This document shows positions 16,233 through 31,640 of a stretch of 32,178 nt of DNA, piece after piece. Position 1 is the stretch's first letter. Each line of letters opens with the position of its first letter. Origin of the DNA: Gemmatimonadota bacterium (GTDB taxonomy: Bacteria; JBHIER01; G020348925); assembly GCA_020348925.1 (NCBI GenBank), contig CP070758.1, positions 4,716,394-4,748,571 of the forward strand, written 5' to 3'. The translations under genes were made by a program, and so were the position numbers. The notes under the pieces are model-generated. The model was given only the letters and a program-made list of their open reading frames with translations, was not told the DNA's origin and did not search any database.

Positions 16233-18968
16233 TCATTTCATCAGCAGCATTCGTTTCGTGGACGCATAGTCGTTCGCCTCCAGTCGATAGAAATAGACAC
16301 CGCTGGCCATATTGCCACCGTCCCACTTGACAGCATGTTTACCCGCCGGGAGCTCTTCATCGATCAATACTTCCACGATTTGCCCAAGAATATTATACAC
16401 TGCGAGTCTCGCATCCGCTTGTTCGGGGAGATCAAACGTGAGCTCTGTTAGGGGATTGAAGGGATTGGGATAATTCTGTTTGAGACTGTATTCCTCCTGG
16501 ACCAACGAGGTGGCCTTGACCATTTCCATAAAACTGGTGAAATCCTCTGGTGAGAGATGACCTTCCAGCCTCCTGAGAAATTCCATCGCCTCGTCATTTA
16601 CAATTGGCTTGCCGGCCACTTGCGAACAGTCTCCGATTCCGAGAATCACATTGACCACACCCAAGACATCCAGAACGTTAATACTGGCATCACTGTTGCA
16701 GTCCGCTCGCCACCATGCATCACCCTCAAGAGGTTGAATATCTAAAATATGGTTGACAATGGCTAGAACATCAAGAACATTGGTGCTGCCGTTACCGTCA
16801 ACATCACCGCGTTCCAATTCGCAGGCATCACCCGTTCCATCTCCGTCACTGTCAATTTGATCAGGATTGTACACAGTAGGACAGTTATCCTCTTCGCACG
16901 TGTCACCGTATCCTGGATCTCCATAGCCGTCGTTGTCGGTGTCCGTGCAGGTATCACAGGCATCGCCTGACCCGTCTCCGTCAGTGTCAGTCTGCTCGGG
17001 ATTGTAAGTCTCAGGACAGCTGTCACACACATCGCCAGTCTCATCACCATCTGAATCTTCCTGCCCTGGATTTGAGTCGCTGACACAGTTGTCCTTGCAG
17101 TCGGTAACACCGTCCTCGTCCGAATCGGTCAATATCCAGCCCAGACTTACATCATCCCAGAATAGTGTTTGTGTGAGCGTTCCGTTCAAATTATTGGTTG
17201 TCTGGTCGAGGAGTGTTTCGCCCTCCCCTTCATTCATTTTCCAGTATCCAAGCAGTCCCGGTCCGGTTCCGTCAAGTTCCTCGTCCATGAAGTGGCATAC
17301 TTCATCCTCGGTTCTGATTGTTTCCCATAATCGGAGTTCATCGATAAGGCCGTTGAAGGTGAAACTTCCACTGGCGTCATTTCCAATAATGATGTCGTTG
17401 TTGCTGTTATCGGCAATCAATCCGGAAGGAGCTGGAAAATAGGTAAGTGCCTGCTCTATCCCGTTGATGTATAGTTTCACCTCGCTGGATGATCCATCAT
17501 ATGTCGCAGCCACATGCTGCCATGTATTGAGTGTGATGGAATGATCCGGCGAGTATGAATAGGTTGGGATTCCGCTGGGGTGAGTAATCTGAAGTCCCAG
17601 GCTGTGATCGGTGTAAATAGGATGGTCGCCGATCAAAAAGAGGGAGAATTGTCCCTTGTCGATGATCCTGCCAAGCCCAAAACCTCCCATCCGTCCCCAG
17701 CCGAAAGGATGGATCCATGCTTCAATCGACACTGTTTCTGAAAGATTATGGTCAGGTGTGGTCGGGCACGTGGCAATACTTTCTTCGTTTTTGAAAAAAA
17801 GAGAACTTTTGTCGCCGAACACCCGGATATGATCCGACCTGTAAGCTTTCTTTGAAGACAGACTGTTCGTCACTTCCAGGCTTACACTATAGATACCAGG
17901 CTCATCGAAGATCCAGGTCGGATGCTGATTGTAGGAATCTATAGTACCATCGAGATCGAAATCCCATGCCCACTCCGTTATTGGATCAAGTGAACTTGAT
18001 CGATCGGTAAACTGAACAGAGAGTGGTGCCTTTCCCGTCCTTGGTTCGGCCTGAAAATATGGAGAGGGACCATCAGAAGGTATCGAATGGGACAGGAAGA
18101 AATCCCACATCACATCGGTGGCCGAAATCAATTCTCCCGGCCAGTCGTGACCTCCCGATGGCAGGGTATAAAGGACAATATCAGCATTACTGGTCATAGC
18201 GGTCCACTTTCTGCCGATCACCCCGTTTTCGTTATAAATGGTATCAGGAAAAGGGTTGCAGCCGTTTATCCCGATCCAGAGGTTGAGTACTTCTTGAACA
18301 GGTCGGACAGGGCCGCAACCTGTCATTCCTCCATAGAAGGGAACGGACTGATCGTTCAGTGCATGAAAGTGAATTATTGGAATGGGACGGATCGGATTGA
18401 TGGTATCAAGGGTCATCTGGCCTGCAACAGGTCCCACGGCGGCGATCCGATCTGACAATTCAGCGGCTATATGATAGGTTGTCATGGAACCGATGGAATG
18501 GCCGGTCACGTAAATCCTTGTTGAATCGATGTTGAAGGTATTGAGAAGGGTGTCAATCAAAGATGAGATGAATCCGACATCGTCAATATTGTTTCGGGAG
18601 GCATAGCAATTATCCTGTCCGCTATTCCATGATCCGTTAATCCCTTCCGGATAGACAACGAAGAAATCTTCAGCGTTTCCTTTCAGCCCGAATCTGGAGT
18701 TATTCTCGATTGACATCGCTCCCCCTCCGAGTGCGTGCAATCCTATAACCAGAGGGTAAGGATACGATCCATCATAGGAGAACGGAACATGGACATAGTA
18801 AATCCGTTCCAAGCCGTCATGTTGAAGGGTGTTATACTGGGCTTGCGCCACACTGAAATGAAGAGACATGAATAGAACAGCACTTATGAGCCAGATCAAT
18901 TTTCTGTTTCTGGTTCGGGGAAATAGATTTCGAAATACTTTTCTTTTCCTGTTCGATTTCTTGTTCAT
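16233..18968 (-). CDS. Secreted multidomain esterase with dockerin and type IX sorting domain
   Basis: A 911-residue exported protein. Residues 1-43 are a signal peptide with a basic N-region and a cleavage site after AQA. About 50-295 is a PHB-depolymerase/feruloyl-esterase-type alpha/beta hydrolase: GLHALGGG (oxyanion hole), nucleophile Ser158 in TGHSIGS, Asp206 in ALNDQSVP, and His274 in GGHDWPG. A PKD domain (303-384, WAWDFDLDG) and a LamG/concanavalin domain (387-600, [12 protein letters not shown]) follow. Thrombospondin type 3 calcium repeats span 612-715. A dockerin-like pair ([25 protein letters not shown]) spans 720-780. The C-terminus is a type IX sorting domain (YPNPFNP at 833-839, ending KRMLLMK). 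I chose the ATG at 18968, preceded by AAGGAG. It probably attacks an ester in polysaccharide or polyester at the cell surface. Confidence 0.92.
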
Positions 18969-19545
18969 GTTTCGCTCCTTTCCGAAATATGCAGGGAAGC
19001 TCAATTTTATAAGAACCAAACGTTTCAAAAGGGATATTAAATTCTTATTTTTTGGACAAACTTACGTTCAGTATATATGCATTAGATGCAAAAGAAAAAT
19101 AATAGTTACAAAAATAGTACGTTTTTGTGATTGATCATTTATTTCCGAGTGACTTCCATATGTTCTATTCTTCTAATGGTTTGTGCCTTATAACCTTTCA
19201 GAATATATGCAATGGTTCCATGTCAAATAATTTCGACCGAAATCCGAATCCACTTCAATCGACCTGACTTTTCCCGGCGATAGATTGCGGAATGAAAATT
19301 TTTTAGACGAAAAGGCTGAGCTAAGAAGCGGGGAAATATTAAAGAGGTTGACAAAAAATGTCATATTATGGATGTATGAAGAAAGACAATAAGAGTAAGG
19401 ATTTTCTTTGAAAATTCTCTCGTTTAAACGCCTCCGTTCATACGTATTCCCTCAATATTGATTTTACACTTGTCATCAAGAATGAACGCTTTGCCTGCGT
19501 TTTGATTCAGTCGTACTGCTTGAGGAGGAAAGTGTTCGCCTTGCT
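18969..19545. other. Intergenic region, no gene seen
   Basis: Upstream region of the secreted esterase gene (ribosome binding site just right of 18968) and downstream region of the HD-domain gene. It is strongly AT-rich at 18990-19140, where the esterase promoter is expected; a TATACT on the minus strand near 19070 is a weak -10 candidate. No other feature is supported. Confidence 0.4.
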
Positions 19546-24656: not shown

Positions 24657-25289
24657 ATGCTTACAAAAAGAACGTTCCTGGAGCTTGATCGCAGGCAGTT
24701 TCTTTCGAAGATCATGCCGGCATGTGCTCTGACATGCTTCGGACTGGGGAGTACCGTTGCGTTGGGACAGGATGCCGAGGAGTCCACTCCTCTTGAGGAT
24801 GTGCACAAATTCGACGAGGAATTCGGAAGAAAATTGACGTACAGACAGTATTTTGTCGCACGATATGGAGAATTCATCCAATTGGCCAAAGCTTTGGAGA
24901 AGGAACTCGGAGAAGAAAAGACGATACAATTTCTCAAGGAATACACAACAGAGAAAATGCTCCAATACGGCAAGAGCCACGCCAGTAAATCGCCTGATAA
25001 TGGTTTTCACACGTATACGGACACCTTTCGAGACCCCGAGAGGTACAAGAACACCGCAACCATGGAGATTATTGAGGACACGGAAAGGGCCTTCGAGCTG
25101 AAAGTGACCGAGTGTTTATGGGCGACCTCCTTTTTAGATGCCGATGCCGGGGAAATCGGTTATGCGTCCGTGTGCTACGGTGACTACGCCTGGGCCGAGG
25201 GCTTCAATCCTAAAATTGGCCTGATCCGTGACAAGACTTTGATGCAGGGGCATGGCTACTGCAATCATCGATACATTCTCAAGGTGTAA
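24657..25289 (+). CDS. Tat-exported L-2-amino-thiazoline-4-carboxylate hydrolase family protein
   Basis: A 210-residue protein. The N-terminus is a twin-arginine signal: D11-R12-R13-Q-F-L-S-K followed by a hydrophobic run and ALGQDA, so export in folded form is expected. The C-terminal part matches the ATC hydrolase family, whose characterised member opens a thiazoline ring on the route to cysteine: TECLWATSFL (Cys153), GYASVCYGDYAWA (Cys173) and TLMQGHGYCNHRY (Cys202) form the conserved cysteine-containing core. The family is broad and most members are uncharacterised, so the thiazoline substrate is not implied. I chose the ATG at 24657 because it gives a proper Tat signal and follows GGGGG. 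It precedes the glycyl radical genes on the same strand. Confidence 0.8.
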   Translation: MLTKRTFLELDRRQFLSKIMPACALTCFGLGSTVALGQDAEESTPLEDVHKFDEEFGRKLTYRQYFVARYGEFIQLAKALEKELGEEKTIQFLKEYTTEKMLQYGKSHASKSPDNGFHTYTDTFRDPERYKNTATMEIIEDTERAFELKVTECLWATSFLDADAGEIGYASVCYGDYAWAEGFNPKIGLIRDKTLMQGHGYCNHRYILKV

Positions 25290-25595
25290 CCACAATCTCC
25301 AATCCGTGATGTGATATCGGTTCATTTCTTTCGTTCATATGTCATCTCCGGTCAGGGTGACAGCATTCCTATTCTAACATCCTTTATAGATTTCAGAATA
25401 CTCTGAGATCTTGAAATTAATCTTGACTTTGGTCACAGTCTGGGTATAATTATTGGTATATTTTTGGAGTCTGAAAATTCGGAATCGGAAAGATTATGAG
25501 CTAAATTCTTTCAAATATTATTGAGATATGGAGTATACTAAACTCAACAATCTCTGTGTCTCTGAGCCTCTGTGGCGAAATATCCAGGTTAGAAT
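25290..25595. other. Upstream region and leader of the glycyl radical operon
   Basis: It contains the promoter described separately and a leader of about 140 bases before the activase ATG. No gene, no clear terminator for the upstream gene, and no riboswitch that I recognise. Confidence 0.5.
25423..25450 (+). promoter_or_regulatory. Sigma-70-type promoter of the glycyl radical operon
   Basis: TTGACT (25423-25428) and a perfect TATAAT (25445-25450) are separated by 16 bases, pointing toward the activase gene. Transcription would start near 25457 and give a leader of about 140 bases. It is the best consensus promoter I find in the window. Confidence 0.65.
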
Positions 25596-26498
25596 ATGGG
25601 CATGATTTTTGACATAAAAAGATATGCCATCCACGACGGGCCGGGCATTCGGACCACGGTCTTTCTGAAGGGATGCCCGTTGAACTGCCGGTGGTGTCAT
25701 AATCCGGAGGGCAAGGCGCAAAAGCAGGAATTTATGTGGTGGGAGGGGAGATGTATCGGATGTCAGAGCTGTCAGAGCGTCTGTGCTCAGGGAGCCATCT
25801 CCTTTTCGGATGATTCCCTCATTTTGGATCAGGACAAGTGTGATGCGTGTAAAGTGTGTGTCGATGCCTGCAACCCGCGTGCTTTGGAGCTGATCGGGGA
25901 AGAGATGACAGTGGCCCAAGTCATGAAGGAGATAGAGAGAGACGAAGTCTTTTACGACGAGTCCGGTGGTGGGGTAACCCTCTCGGGGGGTGAGCCGCTG
26001 ATGCAGCCGGATTTCTCGCAGGATATTTTGAAATCTTGCAAGGAGCTCATGATCCATACGACCCTCGATACGTGTGGATATGTCCAATCGGATCTGTTTT
26101 CAAGAATCTGTGAGCACGTGGATTTGGTTTTGTACGACCTCAAGGTTGTCGATGATAAGAAGCACATGGCGTTGACAGGCGTATCAAATGAAATTATTGT
26201 AGCGAACTTGAAAGAGCTGTCAAGGAGTGGCAGGAATTATATTGTGCGTTTTCCCGTAGTCCCCGGTGCGAATGATGATGAAAAAGATATTCTCGAATTT
26301 GGGGAATTGGTATCTTCACTCAGTAATGTTAATAGCGTGAGTATCCTTCCGTATCATAACGCAGGAGATGAAAAGAGCAGGAGACTCGTCAACTCGAGAA
26401 CCTCATCATTCTTCGGCCATCCCAGCACTTCTGAGCAAATGGTTGAAATTGAAGAAAAGCTCAAAGCGTTGGGGTTGAAAGTCCAAACAGGAGCATAA
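25596..26498 (+). CDS. Glycyl radical enzyme activating protein (radical SAM)
   Basis: A 300-residue radical SAM enzyme that abstracts hydrogen from the conserved glycine of its partner. The radical SAM cluster ligands are C27, C31 and C34 (GCPLNCRWCHN). Two further 4Fe-4S clusters follow, as in the activases of non-PFL glycyl radical enzymes: C53/C56/C59/C63 (CIGCQSCQSVC) and C82/C85/C88/C92 (CDACKVCVDAC). SAM-binding GGEP lies at 131-134 and the DTCGY segment later. The N-terminus IKRYAIHDGPGIRTTVFLKG is typical. Its stop is five bases before the glycyl radical enzyme start, so they form an operon. The clusters require anaerobic conditions. Confidence 0.95.
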   Translation: MGMIFDIKRYAIHDGPGIRTTVFLKGCPLNCRWCHNPEGKAQKQEFMWWEGRCIGCQSCQSVCAQGAISFSDDSLILDQDKCDACKVCVDACNPRALELIGEEMTVAQVMKEIERDEVFYDESGGGVTLSGGEPLMQPDFSQDILKSCKELMIHTTLDTCGYVQSDLFSRICEHVDLVLYDLKVVDDKKHMALTGVSNEIIVANLKELSRSGRNYIVRFPVVPGANDDEKDILEFGELVSSLSNVNSVSILPYHNAGDEKSRRLVNSRTSSFFGHPSTSEQMVEIEEKLKALGLKVQTGA

Positions 26499-26503
26499 CA
26501 AGA

Positions 26504-28867
26504 ATGACAGAGAGAGTGAGCTTTTTGAGAGAGCAGAGTGTGCATACCCGTCCGTATATTTGCACTGAACGGGCGGAGCTGCTGACAGATTTTTATCAAA
26601 GCGCCTTAACCAATACGGTCTCCACCCCTGTGGCACGGGCCTTGGCCTTCAAAAATATCATGGAGAATAAGACCGTCTATATCGGTGAGAGAGAACTGAT
26701 CGTGGGAGAGAGGGGATCGGCACCAAAAGCTACGCCCACGTACCCTGAGTTGTGTTGTCACACATTGGAGGATCTGGAGATATTGAATGCCAGAGAGCGG
26801 GCGCCCTTCCTGGTGAGTGAGGAGGCGAAGAACGTTTACAGTGAAAAGGTCATCCCCTTCTGGATGGGCAGGACCATGCGCGATCGGATCTTCGCCGCCA
26901 TGTCCGAGGAATGGATGAACGCGTTCCAGGCAGGAGTGTTTACGGAATTCATGGAGCAGAGGGCGCCCGGGCACGCCATTTTGGACGACAAGATCTATCA
27001 TAGGGGATTGCTCGATTTCAAGCGAGACATCAAACGAGGGCTGGATAGTCTTGATTATTTCAACGATCCTGACGCCTACACGAAGGGAGAGGAACTGAAG
27101 GCGATAGAGATCGGTGCGGACGCAATCATTCTCTTTGCGGGGCGCCATGCCGAGAAAGCGAGAGCACTGGCGGAGGCGGAAACGGATCCGCACAGGAAAG
27201 AGGAGCTGGGTAGAATCGCAGAGGTGTGCTCCCATGTCCCGGCCCGTGCTCCGAGAAATTTCTGGGAGGCCTTGCAGGCGTACTGGTTCGTCCATCTGGG
27301 CGTCATCACCGAATTGAATGTCTGGGATTCCTTCAACCCGGGACGTCTCGATCAGCATTTGTATCCCTTCTATGTGAAGGATTTGGAAGAAGGACATCTT
27401 ACCGAGGAGGCCGCAAAGGAGTTGTTGGAATGTTTCTGGATCAAGTTTAACAATCAGCCGGCCCCTCCGAAGGTGGACATCACCGATGAGCAGAGCGGTA
27501 CCTATCAGGATTTCGCCTTGATCAATGTCGGCGGCCTATCAGAAGACGGATCAGACGCCGTCAACGATCTCTCCTACCTCATACTGGATGTCGTTGAGGA
27601 GATGCGGCTCATCCAGCCCAGCGCCTGCATTCAACTCAGCAGCAAAAATCTCGATCGTTTCTTAACAAAGGCCGTCGAGGTCGTCAGGGCCGGGTTCGGA
27701 CAACCCTCGATGTTCAATACCGATGTGATTCTGCAGGAGTTTCTCCACGCCGGCAAGTCCATGGAGGATGCGAGGGCTGGGGGGCCGAGCGGCTGTGTGA
27801 CCATCAGTGCCTTCGGCAAGGAGAGCTGCACGTTGACCGGATACTGCAACTGGCCCAAAATCTTTGAGCTGACCCTGAACAACGGAACCGATCCGCAGAA
27901 TGGAGTGCCCGTCGGACTGAAGACGGGCAACCCTGCGGATTTCTCGACCTTTGACCATTTGTTATCAGCGTATAGAGAACAACTGAAATACTTTTTGGAC
28001 ATCAAGATCAAAGGTAATAATATCATTGAGAGAATCTACGCGGAGTATATGCCTGCGCCTTTCATGTCGCTCCTTGTTGATGACTGTATTGCCAAGGCGA
28101 AGGATTATCACAACGGCGGGCCGCGGTATAATTCCACGTATATCCAGGGTGTCGGTATTGGGACGCTGACGGATTCGCTGTCAGCGGTGAAATATCATGT
28201 CTTTGACAATAGGCATATGACGATGGCCGAGCTGCTTGAGCTGCTTCGGGATGACTTTACCGGGTCCGAGAAAACAAGAAAGATGTTGTTAAACGAAACT
28301 CCGAAGTACGGCAATGATGAGGACTACTCGGACGGCATCGCGCGGTCCGTCTTTAACATATACTTTGATCTTTTGGACGGGCGGCCCAACACGAAGGGCG
28401 GAAAGTATCGGGTCAATCTGCTGCCGACCACGGTCCACATCTACTTCGGGCGGGTTACCGGTGCGACGCCGGACGGGCGGAAAGCAGGAGAACCGCTCTC
28501 CGACGGTATTTCACCGGCACAGGGAGCGGACAGGAAAGGTCCCACCGCTGTCATCAAATCGGCCTCCAGGATCGATCATGCCAGGACCGGCGGGACGCTG
28601 CTCAATCAGAAATTCATGCCGCAGTTGCTGGCGGATGAGGCCGGCAGAGAAAAACTGAGGCATCTGATCCGAACATACTTCAAGCTGGGCGGGCATCACA
28701 TGCAGTTCAATGTCGTCGACGCGGAGACGTTGCGGGAAGCCCAGAGGGAGCCGGAAAAATACAAAGACCTCATCGTCCGTGTGGCAGGATACAGCGACCA
28801 TTTTGTCGATATCGGGAGAGAGTTGCAGGATGAGATTATAAGCAGGACGGAGCATAAAGAATTTTAG
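26504..28867 (+). CDS. Glycyl radical enzyme, PFL-like family, substrate unknown
   Basis: A 787-residue glycyl radical enzyme. The radical site is Gly762 in VRVAGYSDHF, followed by the C-terminus RELQDEIISRTEH typical of the dehydratase/lyase branch. The active-site thiyl Cys is Cys431 in GGPSGCVTISAFGKES. Known eliminases (glycerol and propanediol dehydratases, choline TMA-lyase, hydroxyproline dehydratase) have Cys-x-Glu, with Glu as general base; here Thr433 occupies that place. Pyruvate formate-lyase has Cys-Cys, also absent here. The closest class is thus open: a decarboxylase, C-C lyase or addition reaction, or an eliminase using another base. Length is normal and no frameshift is seen. 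The activase is directly upstream. Confidence 0.95.
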   Translation: MTERVSFLREQSVHTRPYICTERAELLTDFYQSALTNTVSTPVARALAFKNIMENKTVYIGERELIVGERGSAPKATPTYPELCCHTLEDLEILNARERAPFLVSEEAKNVYSEKVIPFWMGRTMRDRIFAAMSEEWMNAFQAGVFTEFMEQRAPGHAILDDKIYHRGLLDFKRDIKRGLDSLDYFNDPDAYTKGEELKAIEIGADAIILFAGRHAEKARALAEAETDPHRKEELGRIAEVCSHVPARAPRNFWEALQAYWFVHLGVITELNVWDSFNPGRLDQHLYPFYVKDLEEGHLTEEAAKELLECFWIKFNNQPAPPKVDITDEQSGTYQDFALINVGGLSEDGSDAVNDLSYLILDVVEEMRLIQPSACIQLSSKNLDRFLTKAVEVVRAGFGQPSMFNTDVILQEFLHAGKSMEDARAGGPSGCVTISAFGKESCTLTGYCNWPKIFELTLNNGTDPQNGVPVGLKTGNPADFSTFDHLLSAYREQLKYFLDIKIKGNNIIERIYAEYMPAPFMSLLVDDCIAKAKDYHNGGPRYNSTYIQGVGIGTLTDSLSAVKYHVFDNRHMTMAELLELLRDDFTGSEKTRKMLLNETPKYGNDEDYSDGIARSVFNIYFDLLDGRPNTKGGKYRVNLLPTTVHIYFGRVTGATPDGRKAGEPLSDGISPAQGADRKGPTAVIKSASRIDHARTGGTLLNQKFMPQLLADEAGREKLRHLIRTYFKLGGHHMQFNVVDAETLREAQREPEKYKDLIVRVAGYSDHFVDIGRELQDEIISRTEHKEF

Positions 28868-29242: not shown

Positions 29243-29279
29243 AATAATTTAAGGATTGTATACTCAAAAGAGGAATGTA

Positions 29280-31640
29280 ATGTCTGAGATAGACTCAACA
29301 CGCCCCAATTTCTCCGATAAAGAGATACGGAAATTTGCCAAGGACTTGTATGGCCTCGACGCCTCTGTTCGACCGTTGGACAGCTACAGTGACCAGAACT
29401 TTCACCTCACAAGTGAGATTGGTGAGGAATTTGTCTTCAAGGCGGCTCATGCCGCAGAGCAAAGGGAGGTCCTTGATGCTCAAAACCAGGCCATGAAATA
29501 CCTGGAAACAGAGTGCACATCATTCGAGTTTCCTCGCGTTTGCAGGACAGTATCGGGCGAAGAGATTGTTTCCGTGAAGACTGGCAAAGGTGGATCCTGC
29601 TCTGTACGGATGCTGACTTTTCTGAAAGGCACTTTCCTCGCCGATCTTGAATCGCAAACAGAAGATATATTATACAGTTTCGGGCGATTTTTGGGCCGTA
29701 TGGACAAAGCGCTCACCGGATTTTATCACCCCGCCGTCCACAGGAATTTGCCGTGGGATTTGAAGAACACCCTTCATGCCAGCCGAAACGTCCTCCATGT
29801 TCGAAATCCGCGTCAAAGAAGTCTGGTCGAGCATTTTCTGCTCCAATTTGAAACGTTTGTCACTCCTGTTTTGCCACACCTTCGCACCAGTGTTGTTCAT
29901 AGCGATGCCAATGACCACAACGTGCTTGTGGATGATTCTGATTCGGGCGACGCAAAGATTGTCGGAATAATCGACTTCGGCGATATGGTTCATACCGCTA
30001 CTGTGTGCGAGCTTGCCATCGCTGTTGCCTATGCGATGTTCGGAAAAAAGGATCCTATGGAGGCGGCCAAACAGATCGTGCGCGGTTATCACGAGGTCTA
30101 TCCACTGAGGGAGTCGGAGCTGGGTATACTTTTTCACTTGATATGCGGACGGCTGTGTATCAGTGTGACCATGTCGGCCCATCAACACGAGCTCGAACCG
30201 GAGAACGAGTATATTATGGTATCCGAGAGACCGGCATGGGCATTACTTGAGAGATTGTTGGAGGTGAATCCCGAGCGAGCGGGCAACGAGTTCTTGCAGG
30301 TGTGTGAGATACCCCTCTCCCAGAAGTGGCACGGTCTGAATCACAGGGAGATCATCGATTTGAGACAACGGCTCATCGGAAAATCCCTGAGCATCTCGTA
30401 TAAAAAGCCGTTAAAAATAATCCGCGGGGCGTTGCAGTATTTATATGATGATACCGGCCAGACCTATCTGGATGCTGTGAACAATGTATCGCACGTGGGA
30501 CATTGCCACCCCAAAGTTGTCAGGGCAGCGAAAGATCAGATGGCGGTCCTCAACACGAATACGCGATATCTTCACGATAACCTCGTGACGTATGCCCAGC
30601 GCCTCACCTCGAAGATGCCTGAGCCGTTGCGTGTCTGTTTCTTCGTCTGCTCCGGAAGTGAGGCCAACGACCTGGCGCTTCGTCTGGCGAGGACGCATAC
30701 GAAAGGGAGAGATGTTCTTGTCGTTGACGGTGCCTATCATGGCACGACCACGTCTGACATCGAAATAAGCCCGTACAAATTCGACGGCCCCGGCGGAGCA
30801 GGCGCCGAACCTTTTATTCACAAGGTCCCCATCCCTGATCTCTATCGGGGAGCCTATGAGGCTACCGATCCGGAGGCCGGTAAAAAGTATGCGGAATACG
30901 TTCGGACGACGATTGAGCGGATGCAGAAGGATCGAAAACAGGTGGCGGCATTCATTTGTGAGCCTCTCATGGGATGTGCGGGCCAGATTGTTTTTCCCGA
31001 AAATTATCTTCAGGAATCCTTTCGCCATGTCAGGAACGCAGGCGGCGTCTGTATCGCCGACGAAGTTCAGGTGGGGTTTGGCCGGGTGGGATCGCATTTC
31101 TGGGGTTTTGAGACGCAGGGTGTGATTCCGGATGTCGTGACTCTTGGGAAGCCCATGGGCAATGGGCATCCCCTGGCCGCGGTCCTCACGACCCCGGAAA
31201 TTGCGGAGTCTTTCAACACCGGCATGGAGTATTTTAACACCTTTGGCGGCAATCCTGTCTCCTGTGCGGTGGGCCTGGCTGTTCTCGACGTGATCGAAGA
31301 AGAAAAGTTGCAGGAGAATGCGCTGAGGGTCGGTGCCCGGATGAAAAAAGGACTTGAACATCTGAAAGCGAAACATCCTCTCATTGGCGATGTGCGAGGC
31401 CTGGGTCTTTTTTTGGGCATCGAGCTCGTATTGGACCGCGAGACACTGGTCCCAGCGACCGAGCAGGCGTCGTATGTCATCGAGAGAATGAAGGAAGAGG
31501 GGGTTCTGATCAGTACGGACGGCCCTTTTCATAACGTTCTGAAGATAAAACCCCCGATGGTTTTCACCGAAGCGAACGCAGATCTTTTGGTCAGCACCCT
31601 TGACAGAATTTTGGGGGAAGATGCCCTTCAGGACCTTTGA
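29280..31640 (+). CDS. Aminoglycoside-phosphotransferase-like kinase fused to class III aminotransferase
   Basis: A 786-residue bifunctional protein. Residues 1-335 form an APH/choline-kinase-like small-molecule kinase: catalytic loop [12 protein letters not shown] (Asp209, Asn214) and metal site IIDFGD (Asp232). Residues 365-786 form a PLP-dependent class III aminotransferase-fold enzyme: CSGSEAND (457-464), [17 protein letters not shown] (594-602) and [11 protein letters not shown] with PLP-binding Lys624. The GKPMGNGHP form is typical of the ethanolamine-phosphate and phosphohydroxylysine phospho-lyase branch. Kinase plus phospho-lyase would phosphorylate an amino alcohol and then eliminate phosphate and ammonia to give an aldehyde. 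Many bacterial homologues carry a peptidase M23 domain between the two; it is absent here. I chose the ATG at 29280, after AAGAGG. Confidence 0.92.

What the first reader, a model, noticed from the sequence alone, without database searches (positions are those of the whole stretch)
26504..28867. Glycyl radical enzyme with Cys-Val-Thr in place of Cys-Val-Glu
The thiyl cysteine (Cys431) is followed by Val and Thr433. The characterised dehydratases and choline lyase use a Glu at that position as general base, and pyruvate formate-lyase has Cys-Cys. The enzyme is otherwise complete (Gly762 radical site, normal length). The substitution suggests a subfamily with different chemistry or substrate.
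Basis: partly seen in the sequence, partly recalled or inferred. Interest (0 to 1): 0.65.

Follow-up and report, generated by a model that had tools for sequence, protein, structure and literature searches.

The report
Hydroxyproline dehydratase lacking an essential glutamate
This gene encodes a close relative of the anaerobic radical enzyme that removes water from hydroxyproline (a collagen amino acid), but a glutamate known to be essential in the studied enzyme is a conserved threonine here and in 17 other genes from several uncultured bacterial and archaeal lineages, which makes it a natural test of what that glutamate does.

Summary
In detail: window 26504-28867 encodes a 787-aa glycyl radical enzyme (GRE) with Cys431-Val432-Thr433 and Gly762. 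It is not an unplaced GRE. [quoted passage not shown] model against C. difficile HypD TM 0.98), and its activase lies directly upstream. Every other residue reported to contact hydroxyproline is kept (His157, Asp275, Ser331, Asp336, Phe337, Tyr447, Thr642). Only HypD Glu436 is changed, and the published E436Q mutant is inactive. Thr at this site is no accident: 18 genes carry it with three synonymous codons, from Planctomycetota, Aminicenantes, Acidobacteria, WOR-3, Zixibacteria and Bathyarchaeota. They form one strongly supported clade that also holds four Planctomycete genes with Glu, so the tree needs two changes. Half of the clade's 24 diagnostic substitutions flank catalytic residues (odds ratio 12). 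Neighbouring genes (t3HypD, OCD-family reductase, Xaa-Pro aminopeptidase, symporter, proC) point to proline/hydroxyproline catabolism. T genomes carry no Glu-type HypD, and nearly all have an enzyme that consumes P5C. Best reading: a hydroxyproline dehydratase variant with a remodelled leaving-group pocket, probably still making P5C (about 0.6). A different hydroxyproline isomer is the main rival. New variant of a known kind; no activity has been tested.

The parts
26504..28867 (+). HypD-family glycyl radical enzyme, 787 aa, with Thr433 in place of HypD Glu436
   Evidence: (NF043068 1257 bits, cut-off 1100)
27791..27805 (+). Cys loop core Gly430-Cys431-Val432-Thr433-Ile434; thiyl Cys431 codon 27794-27796, Thr433 codon ACC 27800-27802
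28787..28789 (+). Gly762 codon, glycyl radical site (HypD Gly765)
25596..26498 (+). radical-SAM activating enzyme, 300 aa; stop codon 5 bp before the GRE start
   Evidence: NF043069 HypD activase is the best family (371 bits, below its cut-off of 425); TIGR02494 346.6 bits (cut-off 174); activase found next to all T-type genes
25423..25450 (+). promoter-like sequence TTGACT-16-TATAAT upstream of the activase (consensus match only)

Best explanation
The gene encodes a hydroxyproline dehydratase of the HypD family. Shown from sequence: the family, the activase, the thiyl Cys, the glycyl radical Gly and every Hyp-contact residue of HypD except Glu436. Inferred: the activase puts a radical on Gly762 and it passes to Cys431. 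With Asp275 deprotonating the ring nitrogen, Cys431 takes a hydrogen from C5 of a 4-hydroxyproline whose carboxylate is held by Ser331, Tyr447 and Thr642 and whose ring packs on Phe337. The 4-hydroxyl leaves, protonated by Asp275 as proposed for HypD Asp278, and hydrogen return to C4 gives delta-1-pyrroline-5-carboxylate (P5C). [quoted passage not shown] In this clade a changed second shell lets Thr433 with His157, or a water in the freed space, do that job. P5C is then oxidised to glutamate (P5C dehydrogenase; the window genome has no proC) or reduced to proline (lineages with ProC).
For: HypD equivalog score 1257 over a cut-off of 1100; HypD is by far the nearest solved structure (1029 bits against 573 for the next) and the AF2 model (pLDDT 91) matches 6vxc at TM 0.98. 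His160, Asp278, Ser334, Asp339, Phe340, Cys434, Tyr450, Thr645 and Gly765 are all kept in all complete T-type genes. Thr is conserved with three synonymous codons in 18 genes. T-type neighbours: t3HypD-like protein with the Cys/Thr pair typical of t3HypD, OCD-family reductase, Xaa-Pro aminopeptidase, sodium/solute symporter, proC (pathway in PMC4113996). The t3HypD-like neighbour also occurs beside Glu-type HypD (L041, L043, L068, L075) and OCD beside L040 and L057. T genomes hold no Glu-type HypD; the one second copy, L091, is also Thr. P5C users: proC in 9 T genomes, and P5C dehydrogenase over the curated cut-off in the window genome and in five T genomes without proC. Thr and Glu forms occur inside one clade with the same first shell.
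Against: C. difficile HypD E436Q has no detectable activity (PMC7077986, Table 2), so losing the carboxylate is not neutral in that background. Twelve of the 24 residues diagnostic for the clade lie within four residues of the catalytic ones, an enrichment no other clade shows so strongly; this could mean a different substrate. ProC and P5C dehydrogenase are common enzymes, so their presence is weak evidence. The window itself has no proline gene beside the operon. No activity is known for any Thr-type member.
Confidence: 0.6

Rival explanations
1. The Thr-type enzyme eliminates water, or another C4 group, from a different hydroxyproline: a cis-4 or 3-hydroxy isomer, or a C4-substituted derivative for which the smaller Thr makes room. 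Ring, amine and carboxylate would be bound as in HypD.
For: The only first-shell change is at the residue that touches the leaving hydroxyl. The surroundings of the catalytic residues are remodelled in the whole clade. GRE dehydratases for other hydroxyprolines exist: the PDB lists N-methyl-cis-4-hydroxy-L- and D-proline dehydratases 8id1 and 8iof.
Against: The four clade members with Glu share the remodelled shell, so the remodelling does not track Thr. Neighbouring t3HypD-like genes already cover trans-3-hydroxyproline in two loci. 8id1 keeps Glu but lacks His160, Asp278 and Asp339, the opposite pattern, so an N-methyl substrate is unlikely.
Confidence: 0.25
2. Different radical chemistry on a proline-like substrate, for example C-N cleavage as in HplG or a reaction without a leaving hydroxyl.
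For: The CXE Glu is absent, and HplG shows that GREs can open the hydroxyproline ring (7vua; PMC11528403).
Against: HplG is much more distant (395 bits against 1029 for HypD). The acid/base set used for dehydration in HypD (His160, Asp278, Asp339) is invariant in the clade.
Confidence: 0.1
3. A degenerate or inactive HypD copy, or a sequencing error.
For: E436Q abolishes activity in C. difficile HypD (PMC7077986).
Against: Open frame, tight operon with an activase, Thr fixed in 18 genes with synonymous codon variation, all other catalytic residues invariant.
Confidence: 0.05

Closest known systems
trans-4-hydroxy-L-proline dehydratase HypD of Clostridioides difficile (PDB 6vxc/6vxe; NCBIfam NF043068)
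   Same: Family, length, fold (TM 0.98), activase, thiyl Cys and radical Gly, nine of ten functionally tested residues
   Different: Glu436 is Thr433. Clade-wide changes beside catalytic residues: T161A, E333Q, N342L, G438S, L453W, M642L, C647V (HypD numbering). No adjacent proC.
N-methyl-cis-4-hydroxy-L-proline dehydratase 8id1
   Same: GRE dehydratase of a hydroxyproline; Ser334, Phe340 and Tyr450 equivalents kept
   Different: Keeps Glu436 but has Glu, Ala and Met at His160, Asp278 and Asp339; 514 bits against 1029 for HypD
[quoted passage not shown]
   Same: GRE acting on hydroxyproline
   Different: C-N cleavage; far less similar (395 bits, 30% identity)
B12-independent glycerol dehydratase and choline TMA-lyase
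   Same: GRE eliminase fold
   Different: Their CXE Glu is the proposed base on a retained hydroxyl (PMC7077986)
Arylacetate decarboxylase 7e7l
   Same: A GRE with a non-Glu residue after Cys-Val (Cys-Val-Leu)
   Different: Decarboxylase; no close similarity outside the fold

Membership tests
[quoted passage not shown]
   1257.2 bits, cut-off 1100
[quoted passage not shown]
   Cys431 and Gly762
[quoted passage not shown]
   His157, Asp275, Ser331, Asp336, Phe337, Tyr447, Thr642
[quoted passage not shown] difficile HypD | tested here: not met
   Thr433, conserved in 18 genes
[quoted passage not shown]
   25596-26498; HypD activase is the best family, but 371 bits against a cut-off of 425
[quoted passage not shown]
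   needs an assay
GRE eliminases (CXE class) | Cys-X-Glu in the Cys loop | tested here: not met
   Cys-Val-Thr
HplG (C-N lyase) | Closest similarity to HplG | tested here: not met
   395 bits against 1029 for HypD
Aminoacyl radical enzymes (Ala/Ser/Thr at the radical site) | Radical Gly replaced | tested here: not met
   Gly762 present

The most novel reading that the evidence does not exclude
The Thr-type clade is a functionally distinct GRE dehydratase of deep-branching anaerobic lineages. It acts on a hydroxyproline isomer or derivative with no known anaerobic enzyme, and its leaving group departs without the CXE carboxylate.
Probability: 0.25. Interest if true: 0.7.

Novelty: new variant of a known kind. 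Interest (0 to 1): 0.48.

Why it matters
NCBIfam calls these genes trans-4-hydroxy-L-proline dehydratase with high confidence although they lack a residue whose mutation kills the model enzyme. Either the annotation is wrong for a widespread clade, or HypD can work without the CXE carboxylate, which would sharpen the proposed mechanism. Thr and Glu natural forms within one clade that share the rest of the first shell make a clean test of what that residue does. The clade also extends anaerobic hydroxyproline use to Planctomycetota, Aminicenantes, WOR-3, Zixibacteria and Bathyarchaeota.

Tried and rejected
No kin of the window genome are held: family and phylum searches returned only itself. 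The low AF2 confidence at residues 329-335 (substrate loop) looked special but also occurs in a Glu-type control, L030, at 330-333, so it was dropped. A single origin of Thr with no reversal was rejected: 0% of bootstrap trees. Radical-site replacement (aminoacyl radical enzyme) was rejected because Gly762 is present. The Cys-loop motifs of 8iof and 7vua could not be printed. No paper on Thr-type HypD was found in the held library; the key subscription papers on HypD discovery and HplG are not held.

Full report
WHAT IS THERE. The open frame 26504-28867 (+) gives 787 aa with GGPSGCVTISAFG (Cys431-Val432-Thr433) and RVAGYSD (Gly762). A radical-SAM activase, 25596-26498, ends 5 bp before it.

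FAMILY. The protein is a HypD: NCBIfam equivalog NF043068 at 1257 bits against a cut-off of 1100. The best solved structure is C. difficile HypD, 1029 bits, the next 573. An AlphaFold2 model (pLDDT 91, pTM 0.91) matches 6vxc at TM 0.98, rmsd 1.4. The activase fits the HypD activase best but falls short of that family's cut-off (371 of 425 bits).

ACTIVE SITE. The HypD crystal structure paper (PMC7077986) reports mutants of ten residues. Mapped on the window, nine are identical: His157, Asp275, Ser331, Asp336, Phe337, Cys431, Tyr447, Thr642, Gly762 (HypD 160, 278, 334, 339, 340, 434, 450, 645, 765). The tenth, Glu436, is Thr433. In HypD this Glu differs in role from that of other eliminases: it points at the leaving hydroxyl instead of deprotonating a retained hydroxyl to make a ketyl radical. 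Asp278 is the proposed base for the amine and acid for the hydroxyl. E436Q is nevertheless inactive.

CONSERVATION. Of 80 related loci, Thr occupies this site in 16 plus the window; a further copy in another contig of one of those genomes (L091) also has it, so 18 genes are known. Codons are ACA, ACG and ACC, which indicates purifying selection on Thr. Sources: Planctomycetota, Aminicenantes, Acidobacteria, a WOR-3 chromosome, Zixibacteria, Bathyarchaeota. In trees built without the trait column all 17 tested lie in one 21-row clade (100/100) that also includes four Planctomycete rows with Glu. Two changes are needed, and no bootstrap tree has Thr as a single clade. Whether Thr arose twice or Glu returned once cannot be told.

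REMODELLED SURROUNDINGS. The 21-row clade has 24 diagnostic positions outside the Thr site. Twelve lie within four residues of the ten catalytic ones, against a background of 9% (odds ratio 12.0, Fisher p 1.2e-7, not corrected for the number of clades tried). About twenty clades were tried; the best clade without the window's group has odds ratio 6.0, p 0.005. Nearly all of these changes are shared by the four Glu members, so they do not depend on Thr. They may be what permits Thr; that is inference.

CONTEXT. Loci L009 and L010 have GntR, activase, GRE, Xaa-Pro aminopeptidase, a proline-racemase-family protein and an OCD-family reductase in line. [quoted passage not shown] SPTGTG) that PMC4113996 gives for t3HypD. 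That paper also assigns Pyr2C reductase to OCD-family enzymes. L012 has the peptidase, L016 and L022 have the peptidase and a sodium/solute symporter, L085 has proC divergently. The same t3HypD-like neighbour occurs beside Glu-type HypD at L041, L043, L068 and L075. T genomes contain no Glu-type HypD. The window genome, one contig at 96% completeness, has no proC although all 14 control genomes ring, but has a P5C dehydrogenase at 811 bits over a cut-off of 614. Five further T genomes without a proC match over the cut-off hold P5C dehydrogenases over the cut-off; nine T genomes have proC. Only two incomplete genomes (G014, G016) show neither.

MECHANISM AND RIVALS. Kept binding residues, exclusive occurrence, shared neighbourhoods and P5C-consuming enzymes favour hydroxyproline dehydration to P5C (0.6). 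The remodelled pocket and the inactive E436Q mutant keep a different hydroxyproline isomer or derivative open (0.25). An N-methylated substrate looks unlikely: 8id1, the N-methyl-cis-4-hydroxy-L-proline dehydratase, keeps Glu but replaces His160, Asp278 and Asp339, the reverse of this clade.

LIMITS. No activity is known. Distances in the model could not be measured. The AF2 weak spot near Ser331 is also seen in a Glu-type control and means nothing special. The sample of loci comes from one pattern-based scan and is not a census.

Noticed in passing
window 29256-31640 (+): Fusion of an APH-family kinase with a class-III PLP domain; the PLP half is closest to human ethanolamine-phosphate phospho-lyase (6tor, E 4e-155). 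A kinase plus phospho-lyase pair suggests hydroxylysine or phosphoethanolamine breakdown; hydroxylysine would be a second collagen amino acid beside the hydroxyproline gene. Not conserved at other T-type loci.
   Followed up: partly
L006:598-4131 (-) (window genome C1, about 3.86 Mb): 1177-aa protein joining a DyP-type peroxidase C-terminal domain match (PF20628, 37 bits) to a PFL-like glycyl radical enzyme with Cys-Phe-Glu and an RMGGWSEF radical loop; an odd pairing of a peroxidase-like domain with an oxygen-sensitive radical enzyme.
   Followed up: partly
window genome G000: No pyrroline-5-carboxylate reductase (proC) found in a near-complete single-contig genome; six other T-type genomes (G002-G005, G008, G016) outside Planctomycetota and Bathyarchaeota also lack one over the cut-off, as does the incomplete Planctomycete G014.
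   Followed up: yes
window 24657-25286 (+): ATC_hydrolase-domain protein (PF14196, 80 bits) with a twin-arginine-like N-terminus (DRRQFLSK), upstream of the activase.
   Followed up: no
L005:1390-4014 (+) (window genome C1, about 1.344 Mb): A second, diverged GRE (875 aa, Cys-Val-Glu) nearest choline TMA-lyase but far below any equivalog cut-off.
   Followed up: partly
window 16233-19028 (-): Secreted protein with PHA-depolymerase-like esterase domain and a type IX secretion sorting domain.
   Followed up: no
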